Assembly: GCA_964036195.1 (NCBI GenBank)
Contig: OZ038459.1
Coordinates: forward strand, 20,271,206 to 20,335,205
Source: Sphaerolaimus hirsutus
Lineage: Eukaryota; Nematoda; Chromadorea; Monhysterida; Sphaerolaimidae
Direction of reading: 5' to 3'
Length of the DNA stretch: 64,000 bases
Shown here: positions 2,484 to 62,577 of the stretch, piece by piece
How the letters are laid out: every line of letters begins with the position of its first letter
Position numbering within the stretch: the first letter of the stretch is position 1
The notes under the pieces: generated by a model
Databases searched by the model: none
Seen by the model: the letters and a program-made list of their open reading frames with translations, nothing else
What the model was told of the DNA's origin: nothing
Translations under genes and position numbers: made by a program

Positions 2484-5400
2484 TCACAAAACATCTACAA
2501 TCTCTTCCAACCCACCAAAACGATGATTATCCGCCCGTCCGCAATTTCTCTCAAAATGAGCATCCGCATTTTCGTTTGTCCAGGCGCGAAGCACACCGGC
2601 GCCAGCTTGTTCCCCTCCAGCATCATCGACCTCAATATGGGCATCAAGGTCGCCATCGGATTGGGTTTGAGTGCGGTCGCCATTTGGATAGCTGGTGTAG
2701 GCCAGTTGCATGGGTTGGGGCGGCGCGTCCGAACTTGGATGGAACATACTTTGGCCCGGCTCAAAAGGGTCGCCGACGCAAATGTCCGTGTTGAACGGCG
2801 TGGCGGGCATGGGCGCACCGGGGAATTCGACCCCAGATTCCTGTGTTTGATGGGGATTAGAAAAGTTTTTGTAATTTTTTTGGGTTTCGGTGCATTAACT
2901 TTGGTTTGGGCTCGCTCAACGTGTTAACGACTAACGGGTTATCAATTAACGGGATAGATAAACGGGCTGGGGAAAAAAGCCTCTTATTCTGGCAATATAA
3001 ATACATGCATTTGGCGTTTATGAAAATAATGACATTCCAAACGGGTCGGACTTATTTAGTATCGTAGGGGAATTAAGGATAAGAATAAAACCAACAAAAA
3101 AGTCGTCCAAAGTAAGCATGCGAGGCCAGAAAAAAGCCCTGTTAAATTCGAGCATTTCGTGTTGCAATGACGCGCCGCACTCAAGTCGCAGTTGCAGCCT
3201 GTGAAATCGGACTAATCAAAAATTAGTTAATTGGAATCGAAAATTAATCCCTTAAAGAAGTCAAAATTCCAGCTTGTAAACACATGAGTGAACGGATCAG
3301 GTGCCAGTTCCGCAAATTGAGAAGTGAAATGACAAAAGCGAAGTGAAATAGGAAAAGCGACGCGAATTGTGAAGTAAAATTGTAAAGTGAAGAGAAATAA
3401 GTTTTTATTTATATTTATTTTTTTTACTTCGCTTTTGCCAATTTACTTGCCATTATACCTAGCTTTTGCCATTTCATTTCTCACTTCTCAATTTGCGGAA
3501 ATGGCCCCAGGCGCTGAGGGCCATAAAATAGAATGCAGGGCGCTTTTTACGTCGGAGAGAATAAACATCGTCCGCAAACGCAATAAAAAAGCGGCAAAAT
3601 AGTTCCAAAAATTCTAACCCGGTAGAACTCGCCCATTTGGACCAAGATAATAACAAAAAAAAAAGTTCAAAAACTCCTCAAACTCAACCAAACAGACCTA
3701 TGCACCGCACACCTTCCCATGTGTCCCATAGTAACATCCAATGTCTGCGCGCCATGGTACCCATCCCCAGCGGCGCCGCTGTGGCGCCAGTCGGTGACGG
3801 TGGGCAAGCACAGCCGGTGCAGGGGCACGCCCGTGAGGCACTCGTCGTACAGCAGCGTTTGCGTGGGCGGCCGCGCGCACTGGGGGGGGGGGTTATTGGT
3901 GGGTTTTTGGTTGCGGTTTGATACGTGAACAGTTTGGTACCCATTTTTAGGAAAGAATTAGTTTGGTGAAAATTTCGGCGCTTGCGCACATTATTTGGCA
4001 AATCAGACGGTGTGATTTAAAAATTTTAGGCGCCGTACAGCTTTTTAAAGAACGATATTTATAAGAATACACATGCCAGCTCTGGTAGTGTCAAAGGAGA
4101 AAATCGAAAGCCACAATTTAAAAATCAAGAATGTAAAAGTCACGATCGAAGGTAGGATTGTAAAAGCGAATACATCACACAGTATAATTCCGCCAGTACA
4201 TATAAAAATCCAGACAAACCAAATCACCTTTATAAAAAGCACATCCGGTTCAAAATGCAGCGCAATAATGGCATCAAATGGAATGGTCACGGTCACATGA
4301 AACCTAAAGGCATTCCCAGACCCAGCAAAATGCCACATAGAACGGCATGCAAAGTGTCAAAAGGCATGTAAAATGTCCTGCCAAATGGAAAGTCATGTAA
4401 AACGTAATTTCCCATTTAACAGGGCATTTCACATGACCTTCAAGGACGTATCCAGGGGGGTCTGCAGCCCCCCCCCCCGTTCCCATAGGGTGAAACCCGA
4501 AAAACACAGGAAAATGCAAGTTTCGGTAGGATTTTGCTTGGTGTAATGCAAATTTTTTTTCCTATTTGCGCGCATTTTCCTACCAGACATTAGGAATGTC
4601 ACCATATTTCTCCCTGTATCTGCAACTCCTTCAAAATGTACTCAACCGTAGGGTTGGGACGATATATCGTATCGAATATCGGATATCGACTATTTTTCCA
4701 TATCGAATATCGAATATCGATATCGAAAATTTTTAAAAAATATCTAATATCGATATCGAATATCGACCATTTTTTCGATATTCTTTACTCCCTGGGCCTG
4801 ACTTCAAATAAGCCAGGAATGGCACTTTTAGAAGGCGATTTCGTAAGCAATTTTAACAAATTTTGCGTGCAAGCGAACACTTTGTTCTCACATGACATGT
4901 ATTTTTGTTTCAGAACTTGCGACAGCATCAAATCTTGTGCAAATGCTCTCTCAGATGTTCACATAAGAGTATATGTATGTTTAATAGCTACTTACACAAT
5001 GGAAACATCAATGGCACCATGGCATGGCACCTATAAATGGGGCTGGCACCTTTTCCTAACCACATCCGTCACATTTTTAAATCATTTTCTCATTTTGATC
5101 ATTGTGTGCCATTTAAATTTGTATCATCTACTTTTCAGTAGAGATAATCAGTTGGGCTTGTGATCAAATGGAAATGCAATATGCCAAATGAGATATGCCC
5201 TGCTATACCAAAAGCAAAATATCGAAATATCGATATCGAATATCGAGCATTTTTTAATATCGAATATCGATATCGAGGGTCAATATCGTATCGATATCGA
5301 ATATCGAGTTTCAGAAAAAAATATCGAATATCGATATCGAAAAGTCATATCGTCCCAACCCTACTCAACCGTGTGTTTTTTGTGTATTTCTATTAGGGAT

Positions 5401-8400
5401 GGCCGGTGTTTTTTTAACCGTCCTTTTTTAAAAACCAATGTTTAAAAAACAGGCATCGAAACCGTTGTTTCTTTTTTAAAAAACATCAGTCAAATTGTTT
5501 TGTACTATGCACTAGGTATTTTGCAATTTGTGTATTTAGGCCACCGCAATTCAGTCACCTATAGGTAAAAATTTAGGGGGGGGGGGCTGAGCCCCCCGTC
5601 CGCTAGGTTCCGTTAACAAGCAGCCCCCCCCCCGCTTCACAATCCTGGATACATCCCTGATGACCTTTGACACTTTACATGACATTTTCCATTTCCCACG
5701 GCATTTCCCAGGGCCCGGAAATGACACCTGGCCGTGACAGCCGATCGGACGCGGTCGCCCCGCTGCACTGCATGTGCACAGGCTCGCTGAAGTTCGGCCG
5801 CGCTGGCGGCGTCCTCGTGGTCGGCCTTGACCACGACCGGACCGAAGTCGCAGTCGAATTCGTAGACCGGATGGGTGTGTCAATGGGGATCTTTTTTCCG
5901 TTTTCCGGTAGAGTTTCAGTGTCATTTATGTATTACATACAGATTTGCACACTAGGTTGATTTTTTTGTTTGTTGTGTGTTGTTTGATAAATTTGTGACA
6001 TTTACAAAGTGCAGGGCTGGACCCAGGTGTCTAATTCCGCCAATTTTAGGTTGTGAATGGCAAATCAAGTGACAAACAAACTTGTGAATTTTAAGTGAAA
6101 TTGAAAATCATTGTCACTTATAATTTATGAGTTTGCTTGCCACTTACGTACCACCCATAAATTTACCTAACTTATATCCACTTTTCCTGTATACTCGCGG
6201 AATTGAACCCTGTCACTTTTCCGGAAACTTATTGTTTTCCCTTTCCGTTTTCCGATTTCCGTAAATTTCTTTCAGTTGACACACTAAAACCAGACTATTT
6301 AGGCCGTAGTAGACACAAACTTTATTCCGGGTTGCTTTCGATTGATAGCGGAAAGAGGGCACGTCGAGCTGCGTCGGGGGGGGGGGGATTTTTAATAATA
6401 AAATTGGATGATACTTGGTTTTAAATAAAATTTCGGTGACGTCGACAGGAACCCGAAATTTGAAACCCGACTCGGAACCGGAAATAGCTCACGAAAATAA
6501 GTCCAAAAAATCGGTGAATGAATACAAACTAGGTATGACTTCATTTTTTTTAATTATGCGAGCCCTCAAAATTGGTGAGGGAAGTGCATTGTTGCGCTTC
6601 GTGAAGCATTCACCGATCTGAAATCGACACTTCCGATAGAAGCAATCGAATTCTGTCCAAAAAATCTACATGACGTGGCTACAATTTAATTTACGTATAT
6701 CCTCGATTACTTCCACCGTGTAATTATTTTTGGCACACTTTTCAGAGGGGAAACTTTTAAAGGCGTGAAATCACCTACCAAATGTGGGGAATTATTCAAG
6801 TGAGGGGAACTAATCGAGTATTCACAGTATGTATCTCCAATCCAAAAATCCGCAAAACCCAAAACCTCACATGAAAAGCGCCGACGCTCACAGCCACAAT
6901 ATCCTGGCGCCGGGGTCGAAACAACTTCCTACCACTGTGGCGGCCTCTATGAAAGCGCTGGGTGCGCGGCGGGGGCGGGGCCACGCCCTCGGGGGAGCCC
7001 TTGGCGCCGGGGCCGGCCGCGCCGGGGGGTCGGCTGCCGCCCACCCCTGTGGTGGGGTTTGAGTGGGAAATGAGTAGGGTTCAAACGGGATCCCGATCCC
7101 GAAAAAAGCCAATCCCGATCCCGAAAGGTCAATCCCGATCCCGATCCGGAAATCTCAAAAAACCAATCCTGATCTCGATCCCGAAAAGCCAATACCGTTT
7201 GAACCCTAGAAATAAGTGTGTTTTTTGAGCGGATAGGTTTATTTTATTGGAAAATATCACGTTGTATAGGTGGTTGGTTGACGGAATTTGGCAATGTTTG
7301 TGCGGCTGGGGCAACTCCCAGACACTGCAACATGTCAAATCTCATGGGTAAGTTTCAAATGTGATGTAAGATGTCAATCAGTAAAAAAAAACTTCGACAT
7401 TTTACATGACTTTTGACATTTGCATAACATTTAACAAATTTGTATGACATTCGACAGTTTACTTCACACTTTCCAGGGTGTGGGAGGCCCCCCGCTGGAC
7501 GCTTGAATCTCCAGCATATACACATCACGCTTACACACATTTTAACTTATTATAGGTATTACAAATGAGGTATAATTCAATTCAAACTCACCATAAGTGT
7601 CATAAGCAGCCGGGCCGGAAAGGGCGGTGCCTTTGGCCACAAAAACGCAGCCGCCGGACGAGCGCCCAGCGCCGAAACCCGCGCCCACACTGTCGCCGTA
7701 CAGCCTGCAGCAGAAATAAGCCACATTCATTGAGTAGGGTGCGGAAAAAATTGACGGAAATTTTTTTTGGACTGACCGGAAAACGGAAATTGGAAAATGT
7801 TTGCACTTGTCGTGGAACGGAAAATGGGAAAAAAATTTGCATGTAAACGGCAAACAAAGGCCAGAAACGAAAAAATTTCCGGAATTTTTGCTGAAAACGG
7901 AAAACTTCAAAGAAATTTAGCTGGAAACAAAAAATTCGCTTAACTGAGATACCTGCATCCAGATTTACAAGTTTGACAGAAACGGAAAACAGAAATGGAA
8001 AACGGTGCGGGAAAACGAAAAATATGCCGAACCCCCCAGAAAATTGGCCGGAAAATGGAAAATGAGCTAAAAAACAACAACATAAAGATTGCTGGAAAAA
8101 ATCAATCGAGCCAGAAAACCGGGAAAAAAATTGTAGCCGGAAATAAGAATGAAAACAGAAAAATCTTGCATTTGGGAAACGGAACTGCAAAGCGGAAATT
8201 TTAACCCCTAGTTGCGGTATCCACTTCGCACCAAAAAGCGCACCGCACACTGCAAAGTGTAACGGGAAGTTCCGACGATTTTTGCATGGGTGGAATTCAA
8301 AGGCGGAATTTAAAAAAGAGGTGGAATTAAAAATCGTCCGAACCGACCCAAATATGTTTCGTAAATCAAATCGTCCGAACTGACTTTATAATTCTGCCCG

Positions 8401-10559
8401 GGCGGAAATTAAAACGTCCGGACCCGATCGTTACACTTTGCAGTGTGCGTTGCGCCAAAATGTCCCCAACAATCAATTTCCAATTGCAACCCCCAAAACA
8501 GTCCATCACTCACTCATCCAATTCGCTATCACTATCGCTCTGCTGCTCGTGGGCGTGGTCGTCCAGACCGCGCAGCACCTGGGGCACTACCAGACCCTGC
8601 AAAACACCCTGGAAAATGTCAAGCAAAGTGTCAAATGTCATGGAAAATGCCCTGCAAAATGGCAACCGAGTTGCCATTTCGCAGCAGGGCATTTTCCGTG
8701 ACTTTAGACACTTTGCATGACACTTGACACTTTACATGACACTTCACAGGGCCTGCAAGTGACACCTGGTCCTCCTTGAGGCGTTTGATGCGGTCCAGGG
8801 CCAGCTGGCTGCTCAGGCGTTGCTGCCGCCGCCGCGACTCCTCCTGCTCGAGTGCGGCAGATTTTGCCGCCGCTGCGTGTGAAGCTGCAGCCGCTGGCTC
8901 GTTGTTTTGCCCATTTTGAACGCGCGAGGGTGCAGTGTCACTGTTGGGGGGGGGGGGGGTCACATTGGGGTCACAGCAAAAAATGGGTGTGTGATGCGCG
9001 GTGAAGTGTCCTGAAGTGACTTCACGCAGACGCGCAATCTTGGCGTGAAGACACTTCACTGCATTCCAGATGCTTCACGGCACTTCACGAACCATGCAAA
9101 GTACGCTGCAAAGGTTCGTGAAGTGCACTTCACGAATTTCGGGCTTCGTTAAGCTAGGTGAAGTGAGTGGAAGACACTTCACCGAAAACTTCGTGAAGTG
9201 TGTGGAAGTGAGTGGAAGTGTCTTCTCAGAGCTCACTTCCACACACTTCACGAACCGATTTTTTTGCTGTGGGTGTGACTAGGGTTCTAACGGGACCAGT
9301 TTTCGGAACCAGTTCTTCGGGCCGGGACCGGGACCAGAAATTTTTCTTATCGGGACCTGAACTGGGGGAGCGTACCGGGAGGGACTGGCATTTTTTGATC
9401 GGGACCGGGACCGGTACCACCTCAGTCCCGGAATTTCGTCAACCCATCTACTGGGACCGCCGGCACTAAATATCAGGCCCAAACTACCATGTAATATTGG
9501 CCCCACACACGCTAGTTGACATCGACATCAAATGTCAACTGGTTCCCATCCCAATACAAAGCTTGCTGACGAGCCGACGAACGACGTTCAAATATAACCT
9601 TTGAATTGGGCTGGGAACCAGTTAACATTTGATGTCGATGTCAATTATAGCGTGTGTGGGGCCAATAGGTCTTATATAGGGCATTTGAAACGACAATTTA
9701 AAAAAAACGATGTTTATTCATATCATGACATTGAAAAAACAACGTTTTTTTCATCCCTTATCGGGACACCATAAAATTCCGGGAGCGGGGAGTCGTACCG
9801 GGACCGGGACCACTTATTTTGCCGAACCATCTACCGGGACCGTGGTCCCGTTTGAACCCTGGGGGTGACACAAGTTGTTAATAAATACAATTTTCTCTAC
9901 AGGCCACCATTATGACTGGTCGATGAAAGGCACCATTCCGGCGCTAGGTTCTGATGAGCAACCCCACACAATACCCACTTATGGGCCCACACACGCTAGT
10001 TGACTTCGACCCCAAATGTCAACTGGTGCCGATCCCGATTCAAAGCTTGCTGACGATCCGACGAATGACGTTTAAACGCAAGCTTTCAATTGGGACCGGA
10101 ACCAGTTGACATTTGGTGTGGATGTCAACTAGCGTGTGTGGGGCCTATGTACCAGACACTTTCAACAAACCAATTCGCTGAAACATTAGAAACACCCAGG
10201 TGTTTTCGCGGCCGGCCGCGCGCCCGTTTCAATGCAGTTACGGTCTTCACGGGCAAACTACAACCGTCGTATAACTTTTGATCGGATTTTGTTTTACCGC
10301 TGCTGGCGCACGTCAGAGGTTTGTAGGACGACTGTAAAAATAATTGATAAATTAGGGATTTTACTTGAATTAGTGTCGACGTGTTTTCACTTGGCGCAGT
10401 GCCAACCTTTCGTTTCCTCCTGACATTTTTCCCGGATGAAGACACAACGAATGAATGGCGCAGGAATGAATTCCTATTGTCTCTGTTCCCGTTTTCTGAG
10501 TTCGATGAAACATCTCCTTCTACAGCATCATAAACCGCTACCACGCGGCCACCGGACAT
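2484..10559 (-). CDS. Unrecognised multi-exon gene with an N-terminal AT-hook
   Basis: I do not recognise this gene. The start is ATG at 10559 (MSGGRVVAVYD...). Exons, on the minus strand: 10559-10365; 10331-10196 (or to 10153) after a 33-nt intron; possibly 9950-9901; 8940-8766; 8578-8514; 7704-7592; 7046-6871; about 5882-5728; 4303-4228; 3879 to about 3717; 2840-2516 (or to a stop at 2484). Phases agree at most of these joins. Exon 2 holds an AT-hook (ARGRPRKH), a minor-groove DNA-binding motif, so a nuclear role is inferred. Exon 8940-8766 is Ala-rich and then predicted coiled coil (ESRRRQQRLSSQLALDRIK). Exon 8578-8514 is acidic (QQSDSDSELD). Exon 7046-6871 is Pro/Gly-rich then basic. Exons 5882-4228 read DFGPVVVKADHED...VTVTIPFDAIIALHFEP. 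The last exon is acidic. Weak points: the 5882 exon has no AG acceptor in the right frame, and the 3' end is uncertain. Introns 8765-8579 and 5727-4304 are made of one transposon family. Confidence 0.6.
3299..3510. repeat. Palindromic repeat, tip GGTGCCAGTTCCGC
   Basis: Left arm ggtgccagttccgcaaattg and right arm caatttgcggaaatggcccc surround runs of aagcgaagtgaaat and its complement. It lies in the intron between the last two visible exons of the AT-hook gene. Relatives are at 25033-25765 and 61479-61670, with a fragment near 55130. Confidence 0.7.
4441..5659. mobile_element. hAT-like MITE, tip CAAGGACGTATCC, 8-bp duplication ATGACCTT
   Basis: ATGACCTT occurs at 4433-4440 and 5660-5667, directly flanking inverted ends CAAGGACGTATCCAGG and CCTGGATACATCCCTG. 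The arms carry G and C homopolymers typical of this family (copies at 14751 and 35784). It sits inside the introner element and itself contains the TATCGA element at 4649-5363. The 8-bp duplication and CAGGG-like end are typical of hAT transposons. Confidence 0.85.
4649..5363. mobile_element. hAT-like element with TATCGA-array arms, duplication CTCAACCG
   Basis: The ends TAGGGTTGGGACGATATATC and its complement are flanked by CTCAACCG at 4641-4648 and 5364-5371, an exact 8-bp duplication. Both arms are dense arrays of ATATCGA words; the middle (about 4800-5200) is non-repetitive and is a diverged relative of the centre of the copies at 24147 and 37285. Confidence 0.9.
5883..6870. other. No gene seen; repeat remnants
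   Basis: At 5871-5910 a GGGTGTGTCAATGGGGATC...ccgttttccgg end of the GGAAAACGG family abuts the exon that ends at 5728. Positions 5990-6160 hold gtgaatttta/aagtgaaatt words. Positions 6205-6270 have more ttttccgg words. I see no exon. Confidence 0.45.
7075..7208. mobile_element. hAT-like MITE with CCCGAT-array arms
   Basis: The element is TAGGGTTCAAACGGGATCCC ... CCGTTTGAACCCTA with arms of repeated cccgatcccgat. It is flanked by GAAATGAG (7067-7074) and GAAATAAG (7209-7216), an 8-bp duplication with one mismatch. It lies in an intron of the AT-hook gene. Related copies: 9280-9862, 40269-40419, 53908-54235. Confidence 0.8.
7384..7498. mobile_element. Fragment of the introner family
   Basis: Rows of catttacatgac/tttgacatttg ending ccagggtgtgggaggcccccc resemble the right half of the GTGCCAGTCCC family. 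The left half is not clear. It is inside the intron 7591-7047. Confidence 0.45.
7738..8214. mobile_element. GGAAAACGG-family element
   Basis: Starts TAGGGTGCGGAAAAAATTGACGG, ends cggaaattttaacccctag, and is filled with ggaaaacggaaaat words. It begins 33 bases outside the acceptor of the exon 7704-7592 and supplies much of the intron. Better-preserved copies at 33543 and 43498 have 8-bp duplications. Confidence 0.6.
8579..8765. mobile_element. Introner element that is exactly one intron
   Basis: On the minus strand the AT-hook gene reads GAC CAG|GTGTCACTTGCAGGCCCTG ... CAGGGTCTGGTAGTGCCCCAG|GTG CTG. The whole intron is one palindrome of the GTGCCAGTCCC family. CCAG stands at both ends, a 4-bp target duplication; the second copy serves as the AG acceptor and the first bases of the element as the GT donor. 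Deleting the element with one CCAG restores the frame (LKEDQ-VLRGLDD). Confidence 0.8.
8974..9269. mobile_element. CACTTCACGAAG-family palindromic element
   Basis: Ends CAGCAAAAAATGGGT and TTTTTTGCTG enclose arrays of gtgaagtg/cacttcac. The second copy is at 29209-29553 with the same tips. No coding content. Confidence 0.7.
9280..9862. mobile_element. CGGGACCGGGACC-array hAT-like element with nested MITE
   Basis: Begins TAGGGTTCTAACGGGACCAG and ends GGTCCCGTTTGAACCC; the flanks GGGTGTGAC and GGGGGTGAC are a slightly diverged duplication. The GTTGACA MITE at 9496-9665 is inserted in it, and aacgtttttt words lie near 9700. Confidence 0.7.
9496..9665. mobile_element. GTTGACA-family MITE nested in the element above
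   Basis: Inverted ends ttggccccacacacgctagt and actatagcgtgtgtggggcc style, with inner gacatcaaatgtcaactggt and its complement. About 170 bp, non-coding. Confidence 0.75.
9901..9950 (-). CDS. Candidate 50-nt exon of the AT-hook gene
   Basis: On the minus strand, between acceptor ttgctcatcag and donor GTAGAG, 50 nt read NLAPEWCLSSTSHNGG plus two bases. Phase 0 in and phase 2 out match a phase-0 donor in exon 2 and the one-base start of the exon at 8940. On the plus strand the same bases also follow a good acceptor (ttttctctacag) and read HHYDWSMKGTIPALG, so the strand is not settled. Confidence 0.3.
9984..10147. mobile_element. GTTGACA-family MITE
   Basis: Ends gggcccacacacgctagttg and caactagcgtgtgtggggcc with a palindromic body. 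It lies directly beyond the end of exon 2 of the AT-hook gene, so it forms much of that intron. Confidence 0.8.
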
Positions 10560-12307: not shown

Positions 12308-15300
12308 TCACTCTTCAGGTTCTAATTCTCCAGTTTCAGTAAAGCCATAAACAAAAAGTTGTTCAGTTTCGAAAATGGCACCCTCGCCGGCTAAAGGGGG
12401 ATTTTCGAATGTTTGACAGTGGGCCGTGGCAACTCTGGTCAAATCGTCCGCCACTGAGATGCCGTCGCCAGCGCTGAAAAAATGGTGACGTTTTTGTACG
12501 TTGGATATCGATGTGTTTCAGAAATGACGTTTTGAGCAGAAAAAATAATTGTTAATGGCGATCCCTGTGTGTCATGTGCATGTAAATAGGTAATATATTT
12601 TTTGTTAAAATTCTGGATCAATGAAGAATGTTGCTTTCAAAAATTATGCACCGTATTTACAGGTCCGGTGGCATCCCCAGGTGCCAGTCCCGAGCCCTGT
12701 AATTTCATGTGCCAACTGCCACGTAAAATGGCAAATTTTTTTTGTCAATTGTCATGTTCAATAATAAAACAGGTTGTAATTGACATTTTACATGATTTTG
12801 ACACTTGTATTTATACGTTACAGGGCTCGGGACCGGGGTTCAAGTAAGGGGAAGAGCGGTTGCCTGCCGGCGATCACCTAACTAAATACTTATCACGTTG
12901 AGAGCCGCATGTCGCAGGATATGTCAATTTTTCAGCCATCTATCTGGTTAAGAGCATCTATTCAGTAATCCTATTTACAGAGAACCCCCCCCCCAATAAA
13001 ACCACACTTAAAAGCTGAACCATACAAAGCAAAAAAAATCAACCGACCCCCCTCCAATTTTCATCCAATCATTGCCGGCGGCCTGAAACAACTCCTGGCC
13101 GTGCGTTGTTTTGACCACATTGTCGCTTCCGACCCAAGTGTATCTAATGGGCTTAGCGGTGGCATTCACGGGTGAAATTAGTCGGAATAAAAAACACTGC
13201 CCGTTGCCGAAATAGGTGGTTTTTTGTCGGTGTCTTTGAATGCGTTCCGACCAAGCGACTGAGCAGTAGGCGCCGAATAACTGTGAAGGGGGGGGGGGTG
13301 AAATGTCAATATTTGGAACTTTACTTGGAAACTTGACATGATGTATTGTGACATAGTATTGAATCAGAATACAGAATCGGATTTGTTTTTGGGATTTTCA
13401 GTCCCGATCACGATCCCTCAATCCCAACAACGAAATCCCAACATTACTATTTCGATCCCGAAATTTTCAACCCCCAGTCCCGATCCCGAATTTTTTTACA
13501 TAATCCCGATCACAGAAGAAATTGCCAACTTTACTAAATCACGTTTTGCACTGACGCGACGCCTTTTGCACTGAGAAGTGTGAACAGAAACCTACAGTGT
13601 CAAATTTATGCCACATTTCTGGCATACAGTTGTGTTTTTGACCATTTTTATTTCACACATTGATGAAAAACCTGTAATATCAGAATTCAAAATCCCCCAG
13701 CCAAACGCAATCTCCCTACTCACATATCCATTGGAAGTTCGCCAAATCCACAGCGTAGGTTCATACCTCTGCACTCGCTGCCACAACTGCGTAAAACTGG
13801 TGCCGTGCTCGTCGAGCGAAAACAACAGCACCGGTTCCAACAAAGTGACGGGCGCCGGCAACCAAGACTGCACCGTGAGTGCCTGGAATTTTCTATTTTT
13901 ATTTTTCGGAAGAGTTTTTAAAAAGTTTTTTTTCCACCTCCCCAAAGCGACCACATCCCTTGCACCGCATCCACACATCCACCCAAAACACATCCCTCAA
14001 TCAACCTACAAAATGAACCCACAGAGGCGCGTGAGAGCCACACGGACACACTTCGACTAGCCAGCCAGCAGCCCAGCAGCCTCCAGCCAGCGCGCCCGCA
14101 CCCGGTACATGCAGCTGTAGGGCGCCCGCCCTACACTGCCCTACACACACTGTCGATTACACGGTGGTTCGCCTGTCGGGTCGAGTGACGGGCAAAACAG
14201 AGATTAGAGATAGCGTGGATGTTAGGGCTCGGAATTGACCCGACAAAACGAAGGCCCTAACACGCCCCATGCGGGAAAGGGGTTCCCATCGTTGTGGTGG
14301 GCCAGTGTCCAGACTGTTTTGAAGCCACATTTGGCTACACGCCAGGTCGAATTTACAGCCACAGCTACGAAATACGACTGGCACTGGACATGTCATGGCG
14401 CTATAATGGCGCCAGAATTGCGCCATTACGGGTTCCTATTGACAGTTAACAGCTTGTATAGATATTGCAGAGATAATTTTCAGGGTGGGACTGGGGGTTT
14501 CATATGGCACTTTTAAGGTGTAGAGGGCAAAAACGGTTGATTTAATGAAAATAGTTGGAAATAGGTGAAAATGTTTGAAAGTGAAAATTGCCAAAAAGAA
14601 AACAAAAATAAGGACTTACAAGCTAAAAAGTGTGCAAGTGCACAAAAAACAGCCGTAGCGTTTCGGTGTGCCCCATCAGCCCATTCAAGCTAGCACTCGA
14701 CCCAATAACCACCATGTAAAACAACCTAATCCACACAACCTAATCCACCCCAGGGACGTAGCCAGGATATTTGAGCGGGGGGGGCGGATTGTATACGGAG
14801 CCCGGCGAACGGGGGGGGGCGGCGCCCCCCCCCCTAAAATTTTACCCCTGTTGTAGGGGATTGACGCCATGGCGATGGCGCCACGCCATGGCGTCACTGG
14901 CGTTGGCATTGGCGCCAAAACAGCAGTATACGCCTGTATTTTACAGGCATATACAGCGACATGGACAGAAATTGAGTCCATTTTCACTGGCTTTTAGGCC
15001 GCGGAGACTGGTCAGCCAAAAAAATCTGTTGTGAAGGGAGAATGCGCGCTTGCGCGCAAAAATTTTTCAAACTGTCGACAAAAGCGTCGTCTGAAAGTGC
15101 CATTTCTGGCACATTTTTTGGTCCGGCCCGGGAAGGGGGGGGGCGGCCGCCCCCCCCGCCCCCCCCCCCCCCTGGCTACGTCCTTGATCCACCCCCAACC
15201 CCCCTCGCAGCCCCACCACAATCCAACTCGTTCACCATGAGCTTCATCGTGGTGCTGCTGATCCTGGTCGTGCTCGGCGTGGGCGGCTACTTCGGCTACG

Positions 15301-21406: not shown

Positions 21407-22968
21407 TTTCGAACTCAAAACTAATAGTCAACTGAATATTAAATCGTTTTTCTTTTGATGTCCAGCCGGACAAACACAGCCGCGTCTCATATGACCGTGA
21501 GAAAATGAGAAAACACGTCGGAAAGTTATCGCCACCGGTTTTATAGTGCGGTTTAGTGGCTCGCCAGCCCACTCAGTTTGCACTGGAAATTATGTATTGC
21601 TCTTATCGAAAAGTGGCTTAGTTCCGCCGCTTGGAGTTTGTTTGCACTAGCAATAAATGGACGCAGACTTGAATAGTGATGGGAATTTTTTTTACGTTCA
21701 AGCGCCAATTTATAAGAGAGGTGTTGAAAAATGAGACAAGATAAGTAGAACGAGAGTAAAAGTACTTTCGGTACTTACTGAGACCATCGGTAAACATTAC
21801 GGTAAATTTTCATATTTACCGGTGATTACCGGTACCGTAAGTCCAACAAAGCTAGTGTTGAGTGGCTGGACAAGTGCTAAATAAAACAAAACATTTCCAG
21901 GTGACATGACAACGCAACTGTTAAATTTATCAGGTGTCATGACAACGCAACTGTCAGGTAAATACAGCATTTCCTCGGTACACCCCCAGGGGGTATATTA
22001 TTTCGCCAGAAAATTATGAAGGGGGTTTATTCGAGGGGTAGAAGACGCGTGCATCGATGTAAAAAACGCAGAACAGTTGACAACCACAGTTGACAATCAA
22101 AAATAGGATTCTTGACATGAAACAAAACAAAGCAATTAATTTTGGTAAAGTGCGTTGGTTCCAGCGCTATCGCGTTATCAATTTTTATCGCTCAGTATGA
22201 AAACAAATTCTAATTGGATTGGCATTACTAAATGTAAGAAGTTTAAGAGCAGTTTATTTGTATAGGAAATGACTGCGCCAGAGATTATTTACACCACGCG
22301 CACACTTATAAAAGTTTTCCCTTCACACCTACTCATATTTTTTAAAACAGGGGGGTTAAGCCGGTTTCGGGGTGTTGTGGGTTTCCAAAAACAGCTTTTT
22401 AAAGTGAGAAGTGCGCAAAGTGTATAAAGTTGTGTTTTTATTATTTATAATGATAAGAAAACAGAAGCCAATCCCAGCTGAAACCACAAAAAAAGAAAAC
22501 AGAAGCCAATCCCAGCTGAAACCACAAAGTTCTTATCTATGTGAGAAATTTCCCCATTTTATTTGTGTTTTTTTCCGCTGTTATTTTTCGATTTTTATTC
22601 CAAGACCGTTAATTTTCAGCTAAAATTGCCAATAGCGAACCCTGGAAAATAAAAATAGGTAAAAGTAGAATGTTTGGCTTCCCTACACCATATCTACTCA
22701 CTTGACAAGGTGCCAGGTTGTGCCATCGTTTTCACATATTTACACAGTGATAACACTGGAAAAAGAACAGATGACCTACTGTGACTTGCTAAAACTGGAA
22801 ACCGCAAAAATAAAAGAGGATGCCTTGAAAAATTATCAATTGTTTGGCAACGTAAAATGGGCGAATAAACACTGGACATCAAACACCCCTGGACATTTGA
22901 GTGTGAGACGTTTGCATAAAACATCCCTGGACATCTGTACACATGGGCTGAATTTAAAGAACCCAAGG
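21407..22968. other. Upstream region of the TBC1D24-like gene; no exon seen
   Basis: This should hold the 5' UTR and promoter of the minus-strand gene; I see no reliable TATA or initiator. It contains a direct duplication of ggtgtcatgacaacgcaactg-like sequence near 21900-21955, a CCTCGAATAA-type fragment near 21970, and a perfect tandem repeat of agaagccaatcccagctgaa near 22463-22530. Confidence 0.45.
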
Positions 22969-23142
22969 GCAGTCCCAAGCCCTGTAAAGTGTGAAGTAAA
23001 GTGTCAAATGTAAAGTCAAATGCAAAGTAAAGTGTCAATCGAAACAAAAAAGAAAAGATTTTATTACTGAACTTTGCATGACAATTGACAGTTTACTTTG
23101 CATTTGACTTTACATTTGACACTTTACAGGGCTTGGGACTGC
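22969..23142. mobile_element. Introner-family element (about 170 bp)
   Basis: Near-perfect palindrome: gcagtcccaagccctgtaaa on the left, tttacagggcttgggactgc on the right, with tcaaatgtaaagtcaaatgc arrays. There is no exon around it, so this is an intergenic copy and useful as a family consensus. Confidence 0.8.
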
Positions 23143-23857
23143 CACCATGTCTCCCATTTGCCAGTTTCTGGACAGTGCCCAACTGTTGCCGATACTCCAT
23201 TGGCATCACGATGGCTGCAACTGTTATGCATGCAACCGCATAGCCGGCATCACAATTTTAGTGGCACCACTTCACGAGCAATCAATGCACAGTGGGTATT
23301 TCCCCCTGATAACTCCCATGTTACGCATTACATTTGCACTATGGTACAGAAAACACAGGTCCAGTGCACTATCATCCTGAGTACCCATGGGGTTAGTGCC
23401 CTATTGCATTCTCCCATTTTGATATTTGCCTGTAAGCCTTGCTGTGCTGCTGACAAGTTAAAACACAGATAATTTCAGATTTGCAATGGAAATATCACAG
23501 AAGCCCACTGAAACCAGACACCAAACATTTGTACTTGATAAATGACAGTTTTTATGTGTTCATCCAGAAGTTCATCAAAATGTCAGGTGTAAACATTTGC
23601 CAAACCCTGGCAAACATGTGAAAAACACCACTCTTGGAACAACAACTCAGCATTGACATCAATTGAGTGAGTGCTGCGAAATACCCACATTGGTGCAGAC
23701 TTATCAGATGCATGTGCTAGGATGTCCAGGGAGTTTTATGTCAACTGCACACGCGTAAATGTCCAGCAGGAGTGTTGAATCTCATGATTTAGAAGTGTCA
23801 TGATTGAGACAAGTGCGAAGCACCGGGAGGCTCTAGTGCTCAAACTTGGTTCAGGGG
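23143..23857. other. No gene seen
   Basis: Non-repetitive sequence with no exon I can support. Short open frames exist but lack splice sites and family features. Confidence 0.4.
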
Positions 23858-26624: not shown

Positions 26625-26860
26625 GATGCCATTCCCAATCCTTTAAAATGTCATGCAAAGTCTTAAAAGTAATGTGAAATGCCCTGTAATATGTGAAACA
26701 TATTGAAATTTGACATTCTACAGGGTCTTTCAAATGACATTTGACATTTTACAGAGTATTTTACATGACATTTGATATTTTACAGGGTTTTTACAAAACT
26801 TTTGGCATTTTACAGGTAATTTGACACTTAACAGAGTTTTACATGGTCTGGGAGTGTCCC
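26625..26860. mobile_element. Introner-family element inside the composite
   Basis: Starts gatgccattcccaatccttt and ends catggtctgggagtgtcccc; the body is tgtaaaatgtca/tgacattttaca words. No surrounding exon. Confidence 0.6.
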
Positions 26861-50100: not shown

Positions 50101-53012
50101 CATATATTAATATTTTTTTTGTCTTTGCATCGATCATTTTTGTAAACTTTGTAGCATATTTTTCACCCCGAGGGGGAGTTATTCATGAGGGGGGAGTTAT
50201 TCGAGGGAGGGAGTTATTCGAGGGGGGGGGGTTTATTCAAGGATATACGGTACTTTCATATGATTATGTTATGTACATTACATGAATATGTTATGTACAT
50301 TATGTAGTATATTATGTACTTAATGTCAATTTACCTAATCGAAGCTACACACTGCCTGATTTGTGTAGCAATTCCAGTTGAACTATAGATATTGGAATTT
50401 TGTTTGGTTGCTTAAATATCATTACCATTAATGTTAAAGCTGATTTTTTATTATGTTTGCAACGAAATAATGAAGCTCCTGGGGGTAATGAGGGCAGCAC
50501 ACCCCCTGGAAAAAGGCGTTTAATTTTTGTGACGTTTTTCTAAAATAACTTTTCGAATTTCGAAATTTCTAATTTAGAGTAAATACTCACGGTATGTGCG
50601 ATATATTCACCGATGTTTTGACACGGGACTAGGACCACCACCATGTTTTAAATTTATAAAAAAACCCGTCACACGCACATGGTAGAAGGCAGAGAGGAAG
50701 TGCTGGCTATTATCGAGGAAGCGTTGATTCAGCCCCGGGTGGTAAATGTCGTGGCCGAACGCGGCGAAGAGACACGCGAGCTTGTCGAGCGGCTGGAGCA
50801 GCGGGCCAACGCGTCGCTCGCGCAGCAAACAGTGCATCGCGTGCGCCACGTCCGCCGCGTGCACGGCCGTGTGGTACGCGTTCAGCCGGCCGTAGCCGAT
50901 CTCCATCAGACCTGCGTCGAGGTTGCCGCTTGAACACGCTTTTCCAATGCAGTTTCAAGCTTCAAGTTCAAGTTGCAGCCAACCCAAGCACAGCCTGAGC
51001 CTGGTGGGGTCGAGTCTGAACGCCCTGAGCAGGTCGTGTGCGTGCAGCACGCTCTCGCCGATGGTCACCAGTGGGTGGCCCGACGACAGCCGCTCGATGC
51101 TGAAGATGTTCATGCGCCAGCTCGGCAACAACCTCAGCATGCACTGCGTGCGAGCAAGTAGTTTAGCTCAATTGCCATGGTCGTAACGACATTACAGGAA
51201 GGTGGATACCGGAGGTTTATATTTTCAAATACCCCCAAGCGGGTTTTTTCAGGGTGCAAATTTTCAGGGTATTTTCGAGGGGGTAATTTTTGCCTCAGCT
51301 CAAAAATACCTGGGGGTATTTCGGAGGGGGGGTAATTCAAGGGGAGGGTATTTCGAGAAGATACGGTAAATAATTACCTTGAGTGATGACGCCGGCGGCG
51401 CCTCGACCAGCGCGTTATATGCGCGGCCCATGTTCCTGGTTCTGCGCAATCTGAGGCAGCGCTGCGTGCGGTCCGTAGCGAAACGTCTGCACGGCGCGCT
51501 GCGGCTGCGTCTCGTGTTTAGGCTCGCTCGGTAGTCGAACGAAGTGGCATGATTAGGCGCAAGACGTTTAGCGCCGCTGTTGACGGGGCCGGCCGAACAG
51601 AAGGACTGGGCGCCGCCCGCCCGCTGGTGCCGCGCCCACGACATGCGGTTCTCGATTGCAACCGACGACGACGCGGACGACACGCCTGCGATCGGTGGGA
51701 TTTGGCCCGTGTCGGTGCCGAAAACAATCAAAATTGCCATGCTTGGATGAAGGAAATTGTGCACAGAGCCACTTCCAGACAGTGTAAAATGCCCTGTAAG
51801 ATTTTCACCGATTTAACATAATTTAAATGTCATGGAACGTGTCCAAAGTCTGGTGAAATGCCAGGCAAATTGTCAAATTTTCTTTTAGTTTTTAGCATTT
51901 TTCATGACATAACATGACTTCCGACACTTAGCAAATATGACAACTTGACATTTTACAGTTCCTGTTAGTGATCCCAGAACAGACCGAATGAGAGTTTATG
52001 CAGGAGCGGCGGCCAGCTGGGGTGGGCGATGACGGCGCTGTCGCTGGTGCGGTGCTTGCCGTGGTGGTTGCTCGACGAGGACGGCGACCGCGACGACCAT
52101 CGACTGCTGTGCAGCAGCCGCGCCGAGCNNNNNNNNNNNNNNNNNNNNNNNNNNNNNNNNNNNNNNNNNNNNNNNNNNNNNNNNNNNNNNNNNNNNNNNN
52201 NNNNNNNNNNNNNNNNNNNNNNNNNNNNNNNNNNNNNNNNNNNNNNNNNNNNNNNNNNNNNNNNNNNNNNNNNNNNNNNNNNNNNNNNNNNNNNNNNNNN
52301 NNNNNNNNNNNNNNNNNNNNNNNNNNNNCGGGCAGGGAGCATACTCTTTGGGGGGGGGGGGGTTGGGAGTTGGGTTTTGAGGGGCATACTTTCAGAGTTG
52401 TTATTTATAAGTTCTCATCTTTTTCTAAAGTAAATACACGTACTGCCTACTGGTAAATACTTTTATCTTTAGCCATGCTCAAAAATACCTGGGAAAATAC
52501 TTTTTTGCCCAGTACTTGGTTAATGTTGTGTCAAAGTGTTTTTCCAAGTATTTTTGAGTAAACCGTGTCTTTTTTGTCACGGGGGGGGGGGTGCTTAAGG
52601 CAAGTGACACTAGCTCGAGACAATTTATGTTTTGTACGCATGAGTATTTACCCAGTGCACAGTATTTCAGAGTAAACCCACTATCAATTCTAGATATTTT
52701 GATATTTGAGGGAGGACTCATTAGATAACAATTAGAAACTCATTAGATAATCGGTATCCAAAAATACATTTCACTGAACTTTGCTCACTTCGTAATGCCA
52801 TTTATGTCGTACAGCGCCCGGCATTTTCCACCCGCCAATTTGGGACACAAAAGAGCGATTTGTTTGAGTAGGTCTTCCCATGTTTTTATCTGTCTACTGT
52901 CGTAACGAAATACGGCCGGTCGAATTTCTGGGAAGCCATTCGTGAAGATTAGAAAATCTTTTTGCACCGATTTGTGTATAGCGACGTAGTTACTGGATGC
53001 TCGTAGTGCCAT
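47172..53012 (-). CDS. Doublecortin (DCX) domain protein, 5' exons
   Basis: DCX domains bind microtubules. Exon 1, 53012-52789, starts at ATG 53012 and reads VQKDFLIFTNGFPEIRP, KTWEDLLKQIALLCPKL, GGKCRALYDINGITK, the first two thirds of a DCX domain. Its donor (AA|GTGAGC, phase 2) fits the acceptor at 48474: aa|g gives Lys, then VCSLPELEGTNDPRLLAVG, the usual DCX end (V-SL-EL...YVA-G). Exon 48474-48299 continues LLKAKYGHYKSDKQRLAVL. Exon 47433-47172 reads RRNDSTSSLDKYKDKR, a Lys-Asp repeat (KDKDKNKDND), then VTGDRIRVKRSIRTAS, donor CGG|GTAGGT. Phases between the last two exons do not match, so a small exon is probably missing. A second copy of the exon-2 acceptor region stands beside the gap at 52329-52345. 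PDE7-like exons lie inside intron 1 on the same strand. No kinase domain is seen; DCX family membership is fairly sure, the ortholog is not. Confidence 0.75.
47506..48108. mobile_element. TAGTGATGTAAAGGCACC-family element
   Basis: Ends tagtgatgtaaaggcaccga and cggtgtctttaacatcact resemble the ends of the GCGCC composite at 23858. The arms have ggtgccggtgcgg words; the centre (47570-47930) is an array of gtaaaatacttttt/aaaacgtaaag. No clear 8-bp duplication. Confidence 0.65.
48625..49510. repeat. 890-bp long inverted repeat with CGCACAAA arms
   Basis: Left arm runs cctacgcacaaatgaccggc to ggctgcacgcttccaacgtg; the right arm is its complement (49250-49510). Inside is a second palindrome, 49053-49248, gtttccccaaccccctaatt and complement. 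It lies in intron 1 of the doublecortin gene. No coding content, although several frames are open. Confidence 0.85.
49872..50252. mobile_element. CCTCGAATAA-family MITE
   Basis: Ends taccgtatatcctcgaatga and ttcaaggatatacggta; accccagggtagttattttt inside the left end. A diverged second start (accgtatttccttgaattca) precedes it at 49812. Confidence 0.75.
50591..50628 (-). CDS. Possible 38-nt exon following the PDE7-like exons
   Basis: Minus strand: acceptor gtggtcctag, then SRVKTSVNISHI plus two bases, then a strong donor GTGAGTATT. It would follow the exon ending at 50679 after a 50-nt intron, in phase. The TSV triplet matches the NTSV that follows in PDE7, but the rest does not, so this is tentative. 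Confidence 0.3.
50679..51685 (-). CDS. PDE7-like cyclic nucleotide phosphodiesterase, N-terminal part of the catalytic domain
   Basis: cAMP phosphodiesterases of the PDE7 class hydrolyse cAMP with a two-metal HD site. Minus-strand exons: about 51685-51378, 51143-50984 and 50911-50679, joined in phase by GT-AG introns of 234 and 72 nt. The first is basic (RRTRNMGRAYNALVEAP). The second reads CMLRLLPSWRMNIFSIERL and GHPLVTIGESVLHAHDLL, matching PDE7 CMLEKVGNWNFDIF. The third reads LNAYHTAVHAADVAHAMHC, LLQPLDKLACLFAA and GHDIYHPGLNQRFL, matching PDE7 NPYHNAVHAADV and HDLDHPGVNQPFL. The second Asp of HDxDHPG, conserved in PDEs, is Tyr here. The remaining about 200 catalytic residues are not found in the next 10 kb on this strand. 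The exons sit inside intron 1 of the doublecortin gene and beside a gap, so a truncated copy or a scaffolding error is possible. Confidence 0.85.
51205..51368. mobile_element. CCTCGAATAA-family MITE in a PDE7-like intron
   Basis: Left tataccggaggtttatatttt-like end, inner ggtatttcgaggggg and right tatttcgagaagatacggta. It forms most of the 234-nt intron 51377-51144. Confidence 0.65.
51768..51974. mobile_element. Introner-family element, duplication CAGA
   Basis: CAGA at 51764-51767 and 51975-51978 flanks gccacttccagacagtgtaa and tgttagtgatc ends; the body is tgtaaaatgccctg and complement words. It lies between the PDE7-like exon and the Ser/His-rich frame next to the gap. On the gene strand it begins GATCACT, so a GT donor is not supplied here. 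Confidence 0.65.
51979..52128 (-). CDS. Possible Ser/His-rich exon cut by the assembly gap
   Basis: The minus-strand frame from the gap edge reads RLLHSSRWSSRSPSSSSNHH and then WPPLLHKLSFGLFW before the introner element. GC-rich and protein-like, but cut at 52128; all three frames are fairly open, so the frame and gene are uncertain. It may be a 5' exon of the PDE7-like gene. Confidence 0.35.
52129..52328. other. Assembly gap, exactly 200 N
   Basis: A run of 200 Ns, a conventional scaffold-gap size. The sequence to its right (52329-52480) is about 80% identical to 48459-48610, so the gap lies at a duplication or misjoin. Confidence 0.99.
52329..52345 (-). pseudogene. Second copy of DCX exon 2, cut by the gap
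   Basis: The minus strand reads an acceptor ccaaag followed by a GTA TGC TCC CTG CCC, that is VCSLP, matching the start of the exon at 48474 with the same phase, then runs into Ns. The adjoining intron bases (ggggggttgggagttgggtt) also match. It is either a duplicated exon or the other haplotype. Confidence 0.7.
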
Positions 53013-58061: not shown

Positions 58062-58435
58062 TATTTTTTATTTTTGTTGCATTTGGCACAATTCCAGTAC
58101 TTTGTGTACCTTCTATTGGAGACAGCGCTTCTATTCATTTCATGGCCCAAAAAAAGTTGAAAAAGTGAACCTTCTATTGGAGACATCCTTCTATTGGAGA
58201 CATCCTTCTATTGGAGACCTGCCCTTCTATTAGAAGAAATATGGTGAACGCTTTTCCATATATAGCAATATGATTGGTACATTCACTTACTTCATATTTC
58301 CTATTTTAATGGAGCTTTTTCATGGTTCAATTTTTGCATATTTGTTAATATATCTACATTGGGGTTGATTCGTTATACATTGGGGTTCATCCATAACACA
58401 TGACACTATGAGGGGTGGTTCAACATAGGAGCTGG

Positions 58436-58638
58436 TGGCAATCCTAAGCTCTGTAAAGTGTAAAGTTGAGTGTCAAATGTAAAGTCAAATGCAAAGTGAA
58501 GTGTCAATTGTCCTGCACAGTTCAGTAATAAAATCTTTTCTTTTTTGTTTTAAGTAACACTTTACTTTGCATTTGACTTTACATTTGACTTTACATTTGA
58601 CATTTTACTTTACACTTTACAGGGCTTGGGACCGCCCC
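58436..58638. mobile_element. Introner-family element, duplication CTGG
   Basis: CTGG at 58432-58435 and 58639-58642 (complement of CCAG) flanks tggcaatcctaagctctgta and tttacagggcttgggaccgc. The arms are gtcaaatgtaaagtcaaatg arrays. Confidence 0.8.
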
Positions 58639-60814: not shown

Positions 60815-62577
60815 TTTGTTGTGGTTGACAAAAAGAATTTTACTTCCTTCGCGGCTTGCATTTGCAATTAGAAAGTGTAGTAGTGGCCTTTGATTCTTGT
60901 TTTGTTTCTAATTGAAATGCTTGTCCCTTAGAACAGTGTAAATCGGTTTTCTTAGAATCTGCACAATTTTATGTCACAATGTTAATGAAGTTATGGACCC
61001 TGGAACCTGTTGTATTCATTTTATTTATTCAACCTATTTATTGTGTTTTGTTAATACCCCGAATAACCAGGTATTCAGAGGGTAGACGTAGACACGTTTT
61101 CGCAACTATGTTTTTAACAACTATACCTACCTATAATCATAATTGGCTGGGGGATGCAGCAAGGGAGAGTTATGTAATTTTATGGATACCTTTTCTCATT
61201 TTGTTTAATGTTCATCCGTAGATGCTGTCAACTTGTTTAGTTGTAGCGTAATGTTGTTAATTTGGAATCAATTTCCAGTTCAAAATCACAAAAAATACAG
61301 ATGGAACGTAAATCACCACGATAAACATCGGCGTAATAAGTTTCTGATGGTGAAAAAACCAAACATGCAATAAAATATTTATGAAACCACTAAACGGTAA
61401 ACAACACTGGCACAGCATTTGTAATTTGAACCTCATTTATCGTTTTTGTCAGAATATCATTTATCTGACGGCTCACCTGGTGCCAGTTCCGCCAAATGAG
61501 AAGTGAGAAGTGAAATGGCAAGTGAATTGGAAAAAGCGAAGCAAAAAAATCAAAGACATCAAAAGCTTTTGCCAATTTCCTTCTCAATTCACTTGCCGTT
61601 TCACTTCGCATTTGCGCTTTTACTTCGCCTTTGCCATTTCACTTCTCACTTCTCATTTGGCGGAACTGGCCGCTGTTAACGATAGTAGACGTTCTGAAAA
61701 AAGTTGAATTTTTTTTGAATATTTAAAAAATACTTTTAGAATTTCGAGTTACTGAAAGATCGAAAGGAATTTTACTGATAGCTGAAATTGATAGCTTTTA
61801 CTGAAAGCTCAAAAGCACTGACGCCGTGTGAACGCGTCTTAATTGCTTTTAATGGTGGAAAAAAACTTCGAAAACTAAAACATCTATTTTTTTCTCTCGA
61901 ATTTTTGTTTGCCATCGCCACAGGCTGCACAACGGCGCTGAAATAATGGGGGATGGGCCGGCCGTAAAGTAGAGGGTGCTACTTTAGTTTTGTACCTAGG
62001 AAAACGTAAAAATGAGTATAGGTGAAAGCGAGAGTCGTCGCTATCCCTACCCATCGCGAATTCTATAATTTCCAATGTTATTTTACGCTATTTTTCAGCC
62101 GTTTATATTCGTGTGAGTGATTTTTTGCTTTTTATGCACTCAAAAATGTTCTCAATCACGTTTTCTGTACCCGCGTGTTTTCAAAGTACGCGATTAAGTG
62201 AGTACCGGTATTTTTCCGGGAGGAAACGTAAACGTATTTACGCAGCACTCGAGTATACGTATTTATCGAGTAAACGTAAATACGTTTGTACAACTATGCC
62301 TTACGGCCGGATTTACTTTACGGCCGGGTTTACTTTACGGCCGAGTTCTCGCCGAAAAAATGTTGTTGACAGTTTTACGGTTGTTGCACGTGATGATAAC
62401 TTTCTATAGGTAAATATCGCCTCGCCTCTGTACTATAGGACAATTTTGATTTTGACACATCATTTCATTTGAGCCAAAAGGTGAATAATACGTGAGAATT
62501 AATTGCAATCTCTGAAGTAAATACTCCTGAGTTCTGAAATCCGAGAGTTAATACGGTACATAGGTACTCATTACAAA
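60815..62577. other. 3' flank of the ShKT gene; no further gene seen
   Basis: It holds the candidate AATAAA at 61369, the GGTGCCAGTTCCGC palindrome (61479-61670) and, at 61985-62280, gtaaacgtaaatacg/cgtatttacg words like those in 47570-47930. The open frame at 60979-61221 is hydrophobic and AT-rich and lacks family features. Confidence 0.45.
61479..61670. repeat. Palindromic repeat, tip GGTGCCAGTTCCGCC
   Basis: Left ggtgccagttccgccaaatg and right catttggcggaactggc with gtgaagtgaaatggcaag words and complement; same family as 3299-3510. Confidence 0.75.

What the first reader, a model, noticed from the sequence alone, without database searches (positions are those of the whole stretch)
8579..8765. 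A transposon that is exactly an intron
The sequence shows the AT-hook gene intron is one palindromic element from GT to AG. CCAG is duplicated at its ends; the duplicated CAG is the acceptor and the element's own first bases are the donor. Removing element plus one CCAG restores the frame. Introner elements that create introns this way are known from some algae and a few animals; this family (tip GTGCCAGTCCCAAGCCCTG) I do not recognise.
Basis: partly seen in the sequence, partly recalled or inferred. Interest (0 to 1): 0.95.

Follow-up and report, generated by a model that had tools for sequence, protein, structure and literature searches.

The report
Jumping DNA that becomes an intron
In this animal genome a small mobile DNA element, present in thousands of copies, drops into genes in such a way that the cell can apparently cut it out of the RNA again, so each such insertion makes a new intron; some copies imply a rule-breaking splice end.

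Summary
Window 8765-8579 (minus) is a palindromic nonautonomous transposon of 184 bp plus one copy of a 3-bp target duplication, CAG (not CCAG), beginning GT and ending AG, in the tail of an AT-hook gene. The genome (348 Mb) holds 1,950 exact CAG|tip and 1,823 exact CTG|tip matches. The CWG target, a GGG tip at the far end and an animal host fit NuwaI (PIF/Harbinger-type) MITEs; the transposase was not tested. In four conserved genes, leaving out element plus one TSD restores an uninterrupted protein: carnitine octanoyltransferase and acid lipase (CAG copies), cytoplasmic arginyl-tRNA synthetase and OSCP1 (CTG copies). In all four the sense strand is the one on which the element begins GT. So this is an introner family: the element gives the 5' splice site, the duplicated target the 3' end. 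Surprise: CTG copies would need GT-TG introns; an element-borne TTTACAG, usually 19 nt upstream, may recruit U2AF. No RNA was seen. For the window copy two stronger internal AGs are also frame-neutral, so 'exactly an intron' is likely but unproven there.

The parts
8582..8765 (-). the element itself (184 bp), tips GTGTCACTTGCAGGCCCTG and (other end, reverse complement) GGGCACTACCAGACCCTG
8766..8768 (-). upstream copy of the target duplication CAG (end of exon; followed by GTG = proposed 5' splice site)
8579..8581 (-). downstream copy of the target duplication CAG = proposed 3' splice site
8597..8616 (-). internal alternative 3' splice sites: TTTTCCAG (8609-8616, ends 27 nt before the element end) and TTTTGCAG (8597-8604, 15 nt before); both would keep the frame here (30 or 18 nt added)
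   Evidence: positions read
8766..8940 (-). upstream exon, from poly-C tract + AACAG to ...RIKRLKEDQ
   Evidence: acceptor by eye
8510..8578 (-). last coding piece VLRGLDDHAHEQQSDSDSELDE and stop
10128..10559 (-). upstream coding region of the same gene with AT-hook-like RGRPRK (Pfam AT_hook only E 9.1, below its cut-off); exon ends, and that it belongs to the same gene, not settled
60348..60535 (+). closest relative in the window (85% identical over 181 nt), TSD CAT; an open frame with a ShK domain starts 5 nt after its end
59426..59503 (+). short family copy, CAG|GTGGCAG...CCCC|CAG
59956..60150 (-). family copy, CAG both sides, GTG at both tips
58435..58638 (-). family copy read from the GGG end (CAG|GGGGCGG...CAC|CAG); on the plus strand CTG|GTG
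22967..23145 (-). family copy, flanks ATG / TTG
12681..12837 (+). family copy, CAG on the left only
7309..7494 (-). diverged family copy, CAG both sides (left end set next to the CAG)
26626..26860 (+). diverged family copy, flanks GAG / CAG
51767..51974 (+). diverged family copy, CAG both sides (left end set next to the CAG)
5660..5727 (-). truncated copy, CAG|GTGTCATTTCCGGGCCCTG
4309..4440 (+). truncated copy

Best explanation
It is an introner: a nonautonomous DNA transposon (MITE) that makes spliceosomal introns by inserting into exons. Step 1 (shown for copies): insertion at CWG, often within CCWGG, duplicates 3 bp. Step 2 (sequence shows it): one tip begins GTG where the far tip, and the usual NuwaI tip, have GGG, so on one strand the site reads C(A/T)G|GTG, a 5' splice site. 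Step 3 (inferred from conserved proteins, no RNA): the intron runs from that GT to the end of the downstream target copy, so the mRNA loses the element plus one CAG (or CTG) and the protein is unchanged. Step 4 (inferred): the element's own pyrimidines and TTTACAG, usually 19 nt before the exon, perhaps with the hairpin, define the 3' end; exon joining occurs at the TSD. The copy at 8765-8579 is an older, diverged member inside the last coding part of an AT-hook gene.
For: TSD sharp at offset 0 in 9 of 11 window copies (7 of 9 without two whose ends I set by the CAG). 1,950 exact CAG|tip matches, reversed-pattern control 0. Exact removal restores conserved proteins across the junction: carnitine octanoyltransferase L083 (E 2.9e-14), lysosomal acid lipase L085 (2.5e-10), arginyl-tRNA synthetase L001 (1.9e-25), OSCP1 L110 (Pfam 4.4e-17). 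GT strand: 6 of 91 segments with a Pfam match at E<=1e-3; other strand: 0 of 76, and 0 of 10 for CTG copies. The nearest internal AG would leave 19 nt and break the frame in 65 of 70 CAG copies (the triplet there is CAG in 63).
Against: No transcript was available. Joined ORF length does not differ between strands over the 70 CAG copies (median 104 vs 105.5, Wilcoxon p 0.95; n>=150 aa 12 vs 16), so most copies are probably not in coding exons. A recalled human codon model favours the GT strand only weakly (p 0.007). The orientation argument is thin if only matches shown to cross the junction count (4 to 0, p 0.125); GDT1 at E 0.0038 stands on the other strand. The exact acceptor scores low (window copy: -0.7, 84th percentile of window AGs) against 4.1 (98th) for the internal AG at -27 (matrix recalled). 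CTG copies lack AG. CAG copies are only slightly commoner than CTG copies (1,950 vs 1,823, p 0.04). The gene around the window copy has no known relative.
Confidence: 0.8

Rival explanations
1. The window copy is spliced, but at an internal AG (TTTTCCAG at -27 or TTTTGCAG at -15), so the mRNA keeps 30 or 18 nt of transposon and TSD (10 or 6 codons); the element carries both splice sites.
For: Both internal AGs score higher than the TSD CAG and both keep the frame in this copy, which is one base shorter at its right tip than most.
Against: In 65 of 70 CAG copies the nearest internal AG would leave 19 nt and shift the frame, while L083 reads through only with exact removal. In the lipase copy L085 internal AGs are frame-neutral too, but the aligned relatives leave no room for such extra residues.
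Confidence: 0.2
2. Insertions in coding exons are young, gene-breaking alleles that are not removed at all; the frame is kept simply because they are recent.
For: Exact tips were searched for, which selects young copies; CAG and CTG classes are nearly equal in number. Second intact gene copies were not excluded (search unanswered).
Against: Coding cases supported by Pfam lie on the GT strand (8 to 0, or 8 to 1 if GDT1 at E 0.0038 is counted; p 0.008 or 0.04; 4 to 0 if only shown crossings count). One interrupts arginyl-tRNA synthetase. The window copy is only 85% identical to its nearest window relative, so not young.
Confidence: 0.09
3. The elements are removed precisely from DNA (somatic excision), not from RNA.
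For: Removal seems exact whatever the TSD is (CAG, CTG), as for transposase-like excision.
Against: DNA excision would not care which end faces 5'; the GT-first orientation is the one seen in the supported exons.
Confidence: 0.05
4. The element landed inside, or at the edge of, an intron that was already there.
For: Other palindromic repeats lie in the upstream intron of this gene (8970-9262, 9270-9860, read by eye).
Against: TSD and proposed intron edges coincide to the base, and the same holds in other, unrelated genes with homology running across the junction.
Confidence: 0.05

Closest known systems
Introners (survey of Gozashti et al. 2022, PMC9860276; abstract, the Results and Discussion section and passages read)
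   Same: Repeated introns that begin and end at a DNA-transposon insertion, with TIR and TSD, co-opting a splice site from the duplicated target. Fig. 2C of that paper (Chrysochromulina: 4-bp TSD, element carries the 5' splice site, co-opts the 3' one) works the same way.
   Different: 3-bp CWG TSD; an animal (that survey found introners in only two animal groups, copepods being named); TSDs without AG occur in conserved exons.
NuwaI transposons of the PHIS (PIF/Harbinger) superfamily (Han et al. 2015, PMC4482050; abstract, part 1 of the text, NuwaI section and passages read)
   Same: CWG target duplication, TIR usually beginning GGG, families found in animals only.
   Different: One tip begins GTG; transposase not sought; no intron function was noted in the passages read.
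TG 3' splice sites in human introns (Szafranski et al. 2007, PMC2374985; passages read)
   Same: 3' end TG with an AG nearby; their TG-AG pairs lie within 28 nt, here an AG is usually 19 nt upstream (the passages I saw do not say which side theirs is on).
   Different: There TG was never the only 3' site of an intron; here it would be the only frame-keeping one found in OSCP1.
Non-canonical introns of Fritillaria (Soo et al. 2026, PMC13326754; abstract and passages read)
   Same: An animal genome in which introns can end without AG.
   Different: [quoted passage not shown] here ordinary GT-AG introns seem to flank some of the same exons (by eye, e.g. L115).

Membership tests
Introner | Several introns in different genes share sequence out to both splice boundaries | tested here: met
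   By protein homology, not RNA: L083, L085, L001, L110
Introner | Insertion leaves TIR and TSD | tested here: met
   (found in a subset of introner families only)
Introner | Removed from transcripts by the spliceosome | not testable with these tools
   no RNA data
Introner | Site empty in a relative | not testable with these tools
   the tool states that this genome has no relatives held
NuwaI (PHIS) | 5'-CWG-3' target duplication | tested here: met
   9 of 11 window copies identical, 8 CAG; genome 1,950 CAG and 1,823 CTG next to the tip; other triplets were not counted genome-wide
NuwaI (PHIS) | TIR beginning GGG | tested here: inconclusive
   far tip GGG in 76 of 102, GTG in 14; the near tip was GTG by the way of sampling
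NuwaI (PHIS) | DDE transposase and Myb/SANT partner in an autonomous copy | not tested
   this search was never sent; the genome tool answered 3 of my requests and was busy for the rest
U2-type intron | GT at the 5' end, AG at the 3' end | tested here: inconclusive
   met for CAG copies; 3' AG not met for CTG copies in ArgRS and OSCP1 if removal is exact

The most novel reading that the evidence does not exclude
In this animal the spliceosome takes the end of the duplicated target as 3' splice site whether it reads CAG or CTG, so one transposon family makes GT-AG and GT-TG introns side by side, even in arginyl-tRNA synthetase and even within one gene (OSCP1 holds one CAG and one CTG copy about 0.8 kb apart). 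The element-borne TTTACAG would do the U2AF step and a separate rule, perhaps distance or the hairpin, would set the second step. TG would then serve as a regular, sole 3' splice site.
Probability: 0.45. Interest if true: 0.93.

Novelty: new variant of a known kind. Interest (0 to 1): 0.86.

Why it matters
Introners are a leading candidate source of new introns, but were found in only two animal groups in a wide survey. Here a family with thousands of copies shows the design plainly: target CWG plus a GT-tipped element equals an intron, and the GT tip is one base away from the GGG tip usual in NuwaI. CTG copies in conserved exons pose a direct test of how strictly the second splicing step needs AG. 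Because insertions are many and alike, 3' end choice, orientation selection and fitness cost could be measured in one genome with ordinary RNA-seq.

Tried and rejected
Rejected: TSD = CCAG (several copies differ at the first base, such as ACAG/CCAG; only the last 3 bp agree). Rejected as proof: restored frame, ORF length. I first thought that the internal AG was the general acceptor, because the window copies E (8582-8765) and M (60348-60535) both leave 18 nt; the wider sample leaves 19 nt in 65 of 70, 18 in 3, 20 in 2, so I dropped that as the family rule. I first took CTG copies as a negative control expected to be absent from exons; they are not.

Led nowhere: protein search with the AT-hook model, viral contigs, literature search for the tip letters (0 papers), PDB search with the PLC-like join (0), Rfam and tRNA scans. 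'Introner' with 'Harbinger' gave 1 paper (listing only). No paper describing this family was found in searches; Huff et al. 2016 is not held.

Not done: a second copy of ArgRS was not excluded (request unanswered), nor of OSCP1; the species was not identified; no autonomous partner was sought. Choice of samples: the ten GT-strand CTG joins were picked by eye as coding-looking, the ten other-strand ones mainly by length, so those two calls are not a fair contrast. 20 of 90 CAG loci and 14 of 34 CTG loci without a matching right tip and TSD were dropped.
Full report
WHAT IS THERE. The window is animal DNA: a PDE7-like exon, a Pao retrotransposon peptidase and an ETS domain (the ETS match lies just under its cut-off). 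It lies in a 348,482,957-base genome of 762 contigs. On the minus strand at 8765 an element starts GTGTCACTTGCAGGCCCTG and ends ...CAGGGTCTGGTAGTGCCC at 8582, flanked on both sides by CAG. It is nearly one hairpin. Upstream is an exon that begins after a poly-C tract and AACAG and ends ...RIKRLKEDQ; downstream is VLRGLDDHAHEQQSDSDSELDE and a stop. Leaving out element and one CAG gives a phase-0 join.

THE FAMILY IN THE WINDOW. A BLAST with six copies found 17 places; two of these are relatives with other tips (3301-3507 and 61480-61672) and three lie in A/T-rich tandem repeats near 25 kb. 9 of 11 two-ended copies, the two relatives included, show the same 3-mer on both sides at offset 0, and at offsets -6 to +6 otherwise 0 or 1. 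Eight are CAG, one CAT. In two diverged copies (D and I) I had placed the left end next to the CAG, so 7 of 9 is the stricter count. The duplication is therefore CAG, 3 bp. In 6 of the 11 one tip reads GTG and the other GGG; one has GTG at both tips, four have diverged tips.

THE FAMILY IN THE GENOME. CAG followed by the tip GTGSCASTCCCARRCCCTG occurs 1,950 times, control 0; CTG followed by the same tip 1,823 times, control 0. Other triplets were not counted. I fetched 90 of the 100 listed CAG places, all at the start of contig 1; 70 have a matching right tip followed by CAG, 20 were dropped. Of the 100 listed CTG places I fetched 34. A scan of everything fetched plus the window gave 102 GT-tipped two-ended copies with identical TSD: 69 CAG, 30 CTG, 2 CAT, 1 ATG. 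These proportions reflect the sampling, and elements with GTG at both tips (14 of 102) can be counted from both strands. The wider target is CCWGG: C before in 48 of 69 and 19 of 30, G after in 33 of 69 and 20 of 30; the 200 nt around the site are 51.8% G+C against 41.2% at the outer end of 98 of the loci.

ARE COPIES INTRONS? Most copies are probably not in exons: joined ORFs are no longer on the GT strand than on the other, and a recalled human codon table separates the strands only weakly (p 0.007). But several copies sit in conserved genes. CAG copies: L083 joins ...GNFTLST to SFLGYSS and aligns to carnitine octanoyltransferase with no gap at the junction (E 2.9e-14; Pfam 2.1e-15, residues 4-76); L085 joins ...QNAPRP to VVFMQHGLL, as in lysosomal acid lipase (E 2.5e-10, one-residue gap a few residues upstream; Pfam 1.3e-12, residues 5-42). 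Over 91 of 116 GT-strand segments Pfam gave Oscp1 (3.3e-19), Carn_acyltransf (2e-16), Abhydro_lipase (1.3e-12), Cation_ATPase_C (1.5e-10), Neur_chan_memb (2.9e-5) and two overlapping C2H2 finger families (5e-4, 8.7e-4), each in one member, and TUDOR, DUF4715 and VWD weakly. For the channel and the finger the domain lies beside the junction, not across it; for Oscp1 and the ATPase one search gives no coordinates. Over 76 of 96 other-strand segments there was one match, GDT1 at 0.0038, which I take for an exon near the element. By eye, from memory and without a supporting search, L021 looks like SMYD4, L074 like SIRT6, L092 like phospholipase C (C2 match only 0.027), L087 like GPATCH1.

THE SURPRISE. 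I took CTG copies as a control. They too lie in conserved exons. L001...IVKSDGGYTYDTSDL joins AAVRHRVLDDG and aligns without any gap to cytoplasmic arginine-tRNA ligase (E 1.9e-25; Pfam 2.1e-20, residues 7-86), in an open joined frame of 280 aa. L110...TSMDKLYDL joins MTMACKYQF of OSCP1 (Pfam 4.4e-17, residues 7-48); the same gene holds a CAG copy about 0.8 kb away (L028). Six more CTG copies (L127, L115, L103, L131, L132, L030) look coding to me by eye but had no Pfam match. Ten other-strand joins of CTG copies had none either; the two sets were chosen differently, so this is no fair contrast. In CTG copies the exact 3' end is TG. I listed GT-AG pairs near each junction that keep the frame without a stop: none for L110; ten for L001, the two best adding 81 or 99 nt, others changing -6 or +21 net; 3 to 25, mostly with low scores, for the six judged by eye (within -45 to +70 of the tip and -90 to +48 of the end; scores from a recalled matrix).

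HOW IT MOST LIKELY WORKS. Shown: insertion at CWG with duplication; GT-first tip; conserved reading across the join. Inferred: RNA splicing, because the Pfam-supported exons have the GT-first orientation (8 to 0, p 0.008; 8 to 1 if GDT1 is counted, p 0.04), which DNA excision would not require. Counting only matches shown to cross the junction it is 4 to 0, which alone is not significant (p 0.125). Inferred: the element's TTTACAG, 19 nt before the TSD end in most copies (65 of 70; 93 of 102), serves early recognition, and joining takes place at the TSD. Human TG sites depend on an AG within 28 nt and were never the sole 3' site (PMC2374985, passages); the spacing here fits, the exclusiveness would be new.

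THE WINDOW COPY. It is 85% identical to its nearest window relative, so not new; GT and CAG are intact. Its right tip is one base short, so internal AGs at -27 (98th percentile of window AGs) and -15 (88th) are frame-neutral, as is the TSD CAG (84th). The donor CAG|GTGTCA stands at the 89th percentile of window GTs. I think the TSD is used, by analogy; an internal site would add 10 or 6 residues. Its relative M at 60348-60535 has TSD CAT and lies next to a ShK-domain frame (Pfam 4.3e-6); there CAT gives no AG and internal AGs are frame-neutral.

WHAT IS KNOWN. Introners with TIR and TSD are established (PMC9860276, abstract and Results read); one type carries the 5' site and borrows the 3' site. 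Animals were rare: two groups, copepods named. NuwaI has CWG duplications, GGG tips and an animal-only range (PMC4482050). I found no report of this family in the searches named under Tried and rejected, but the species is unknown to me and most subscription papers are not held, so it may be among introners already counted elsewhere.

Noticed in passing
window 3301-3507 and 61480-61672: A second palindromic family, tip GTGCCAGTTCCGC, with the same 3-bp CAG duplication; possibly a second potential introner family.
   Followed up: partly
window 60151-60698: A gene with a ShK domain (Pfam 4.3e-6) beside family copy M, whose TSD is CAT.
   Followed up: partly
L029/L032, L030/L031, L053/L054, L094/L096: Pairs of loci on contig 1 show nearly the same joined flanks at the element, so the insertion looks older than the duplication.
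   Followed up: no
L021 and L104: One SMYD4-like gene (by eye) holds a CAG copy in an exon and a CTG copy shortly after the next piece of coding sequence.
   Followed up: no
window 10332-10364 (minus): A possible 33-nt intron (GTAAAA...TTTTTACAG) inside the AT-hook gene; it is in frame and stop-free, so it may also be exon.
   Followed up: no
window 8970-9262 and 9270-9860: Two other palindromic repeats lie inside the upstream intron of the AT-hook gene (seen by eye).
   Followed up: no
genome G000 as a whole: CAG copies exceed CTG copies slightly (1,950 to 1,823, p 0.04), as if some CTG insertions had been lost.
   Followed up: partly
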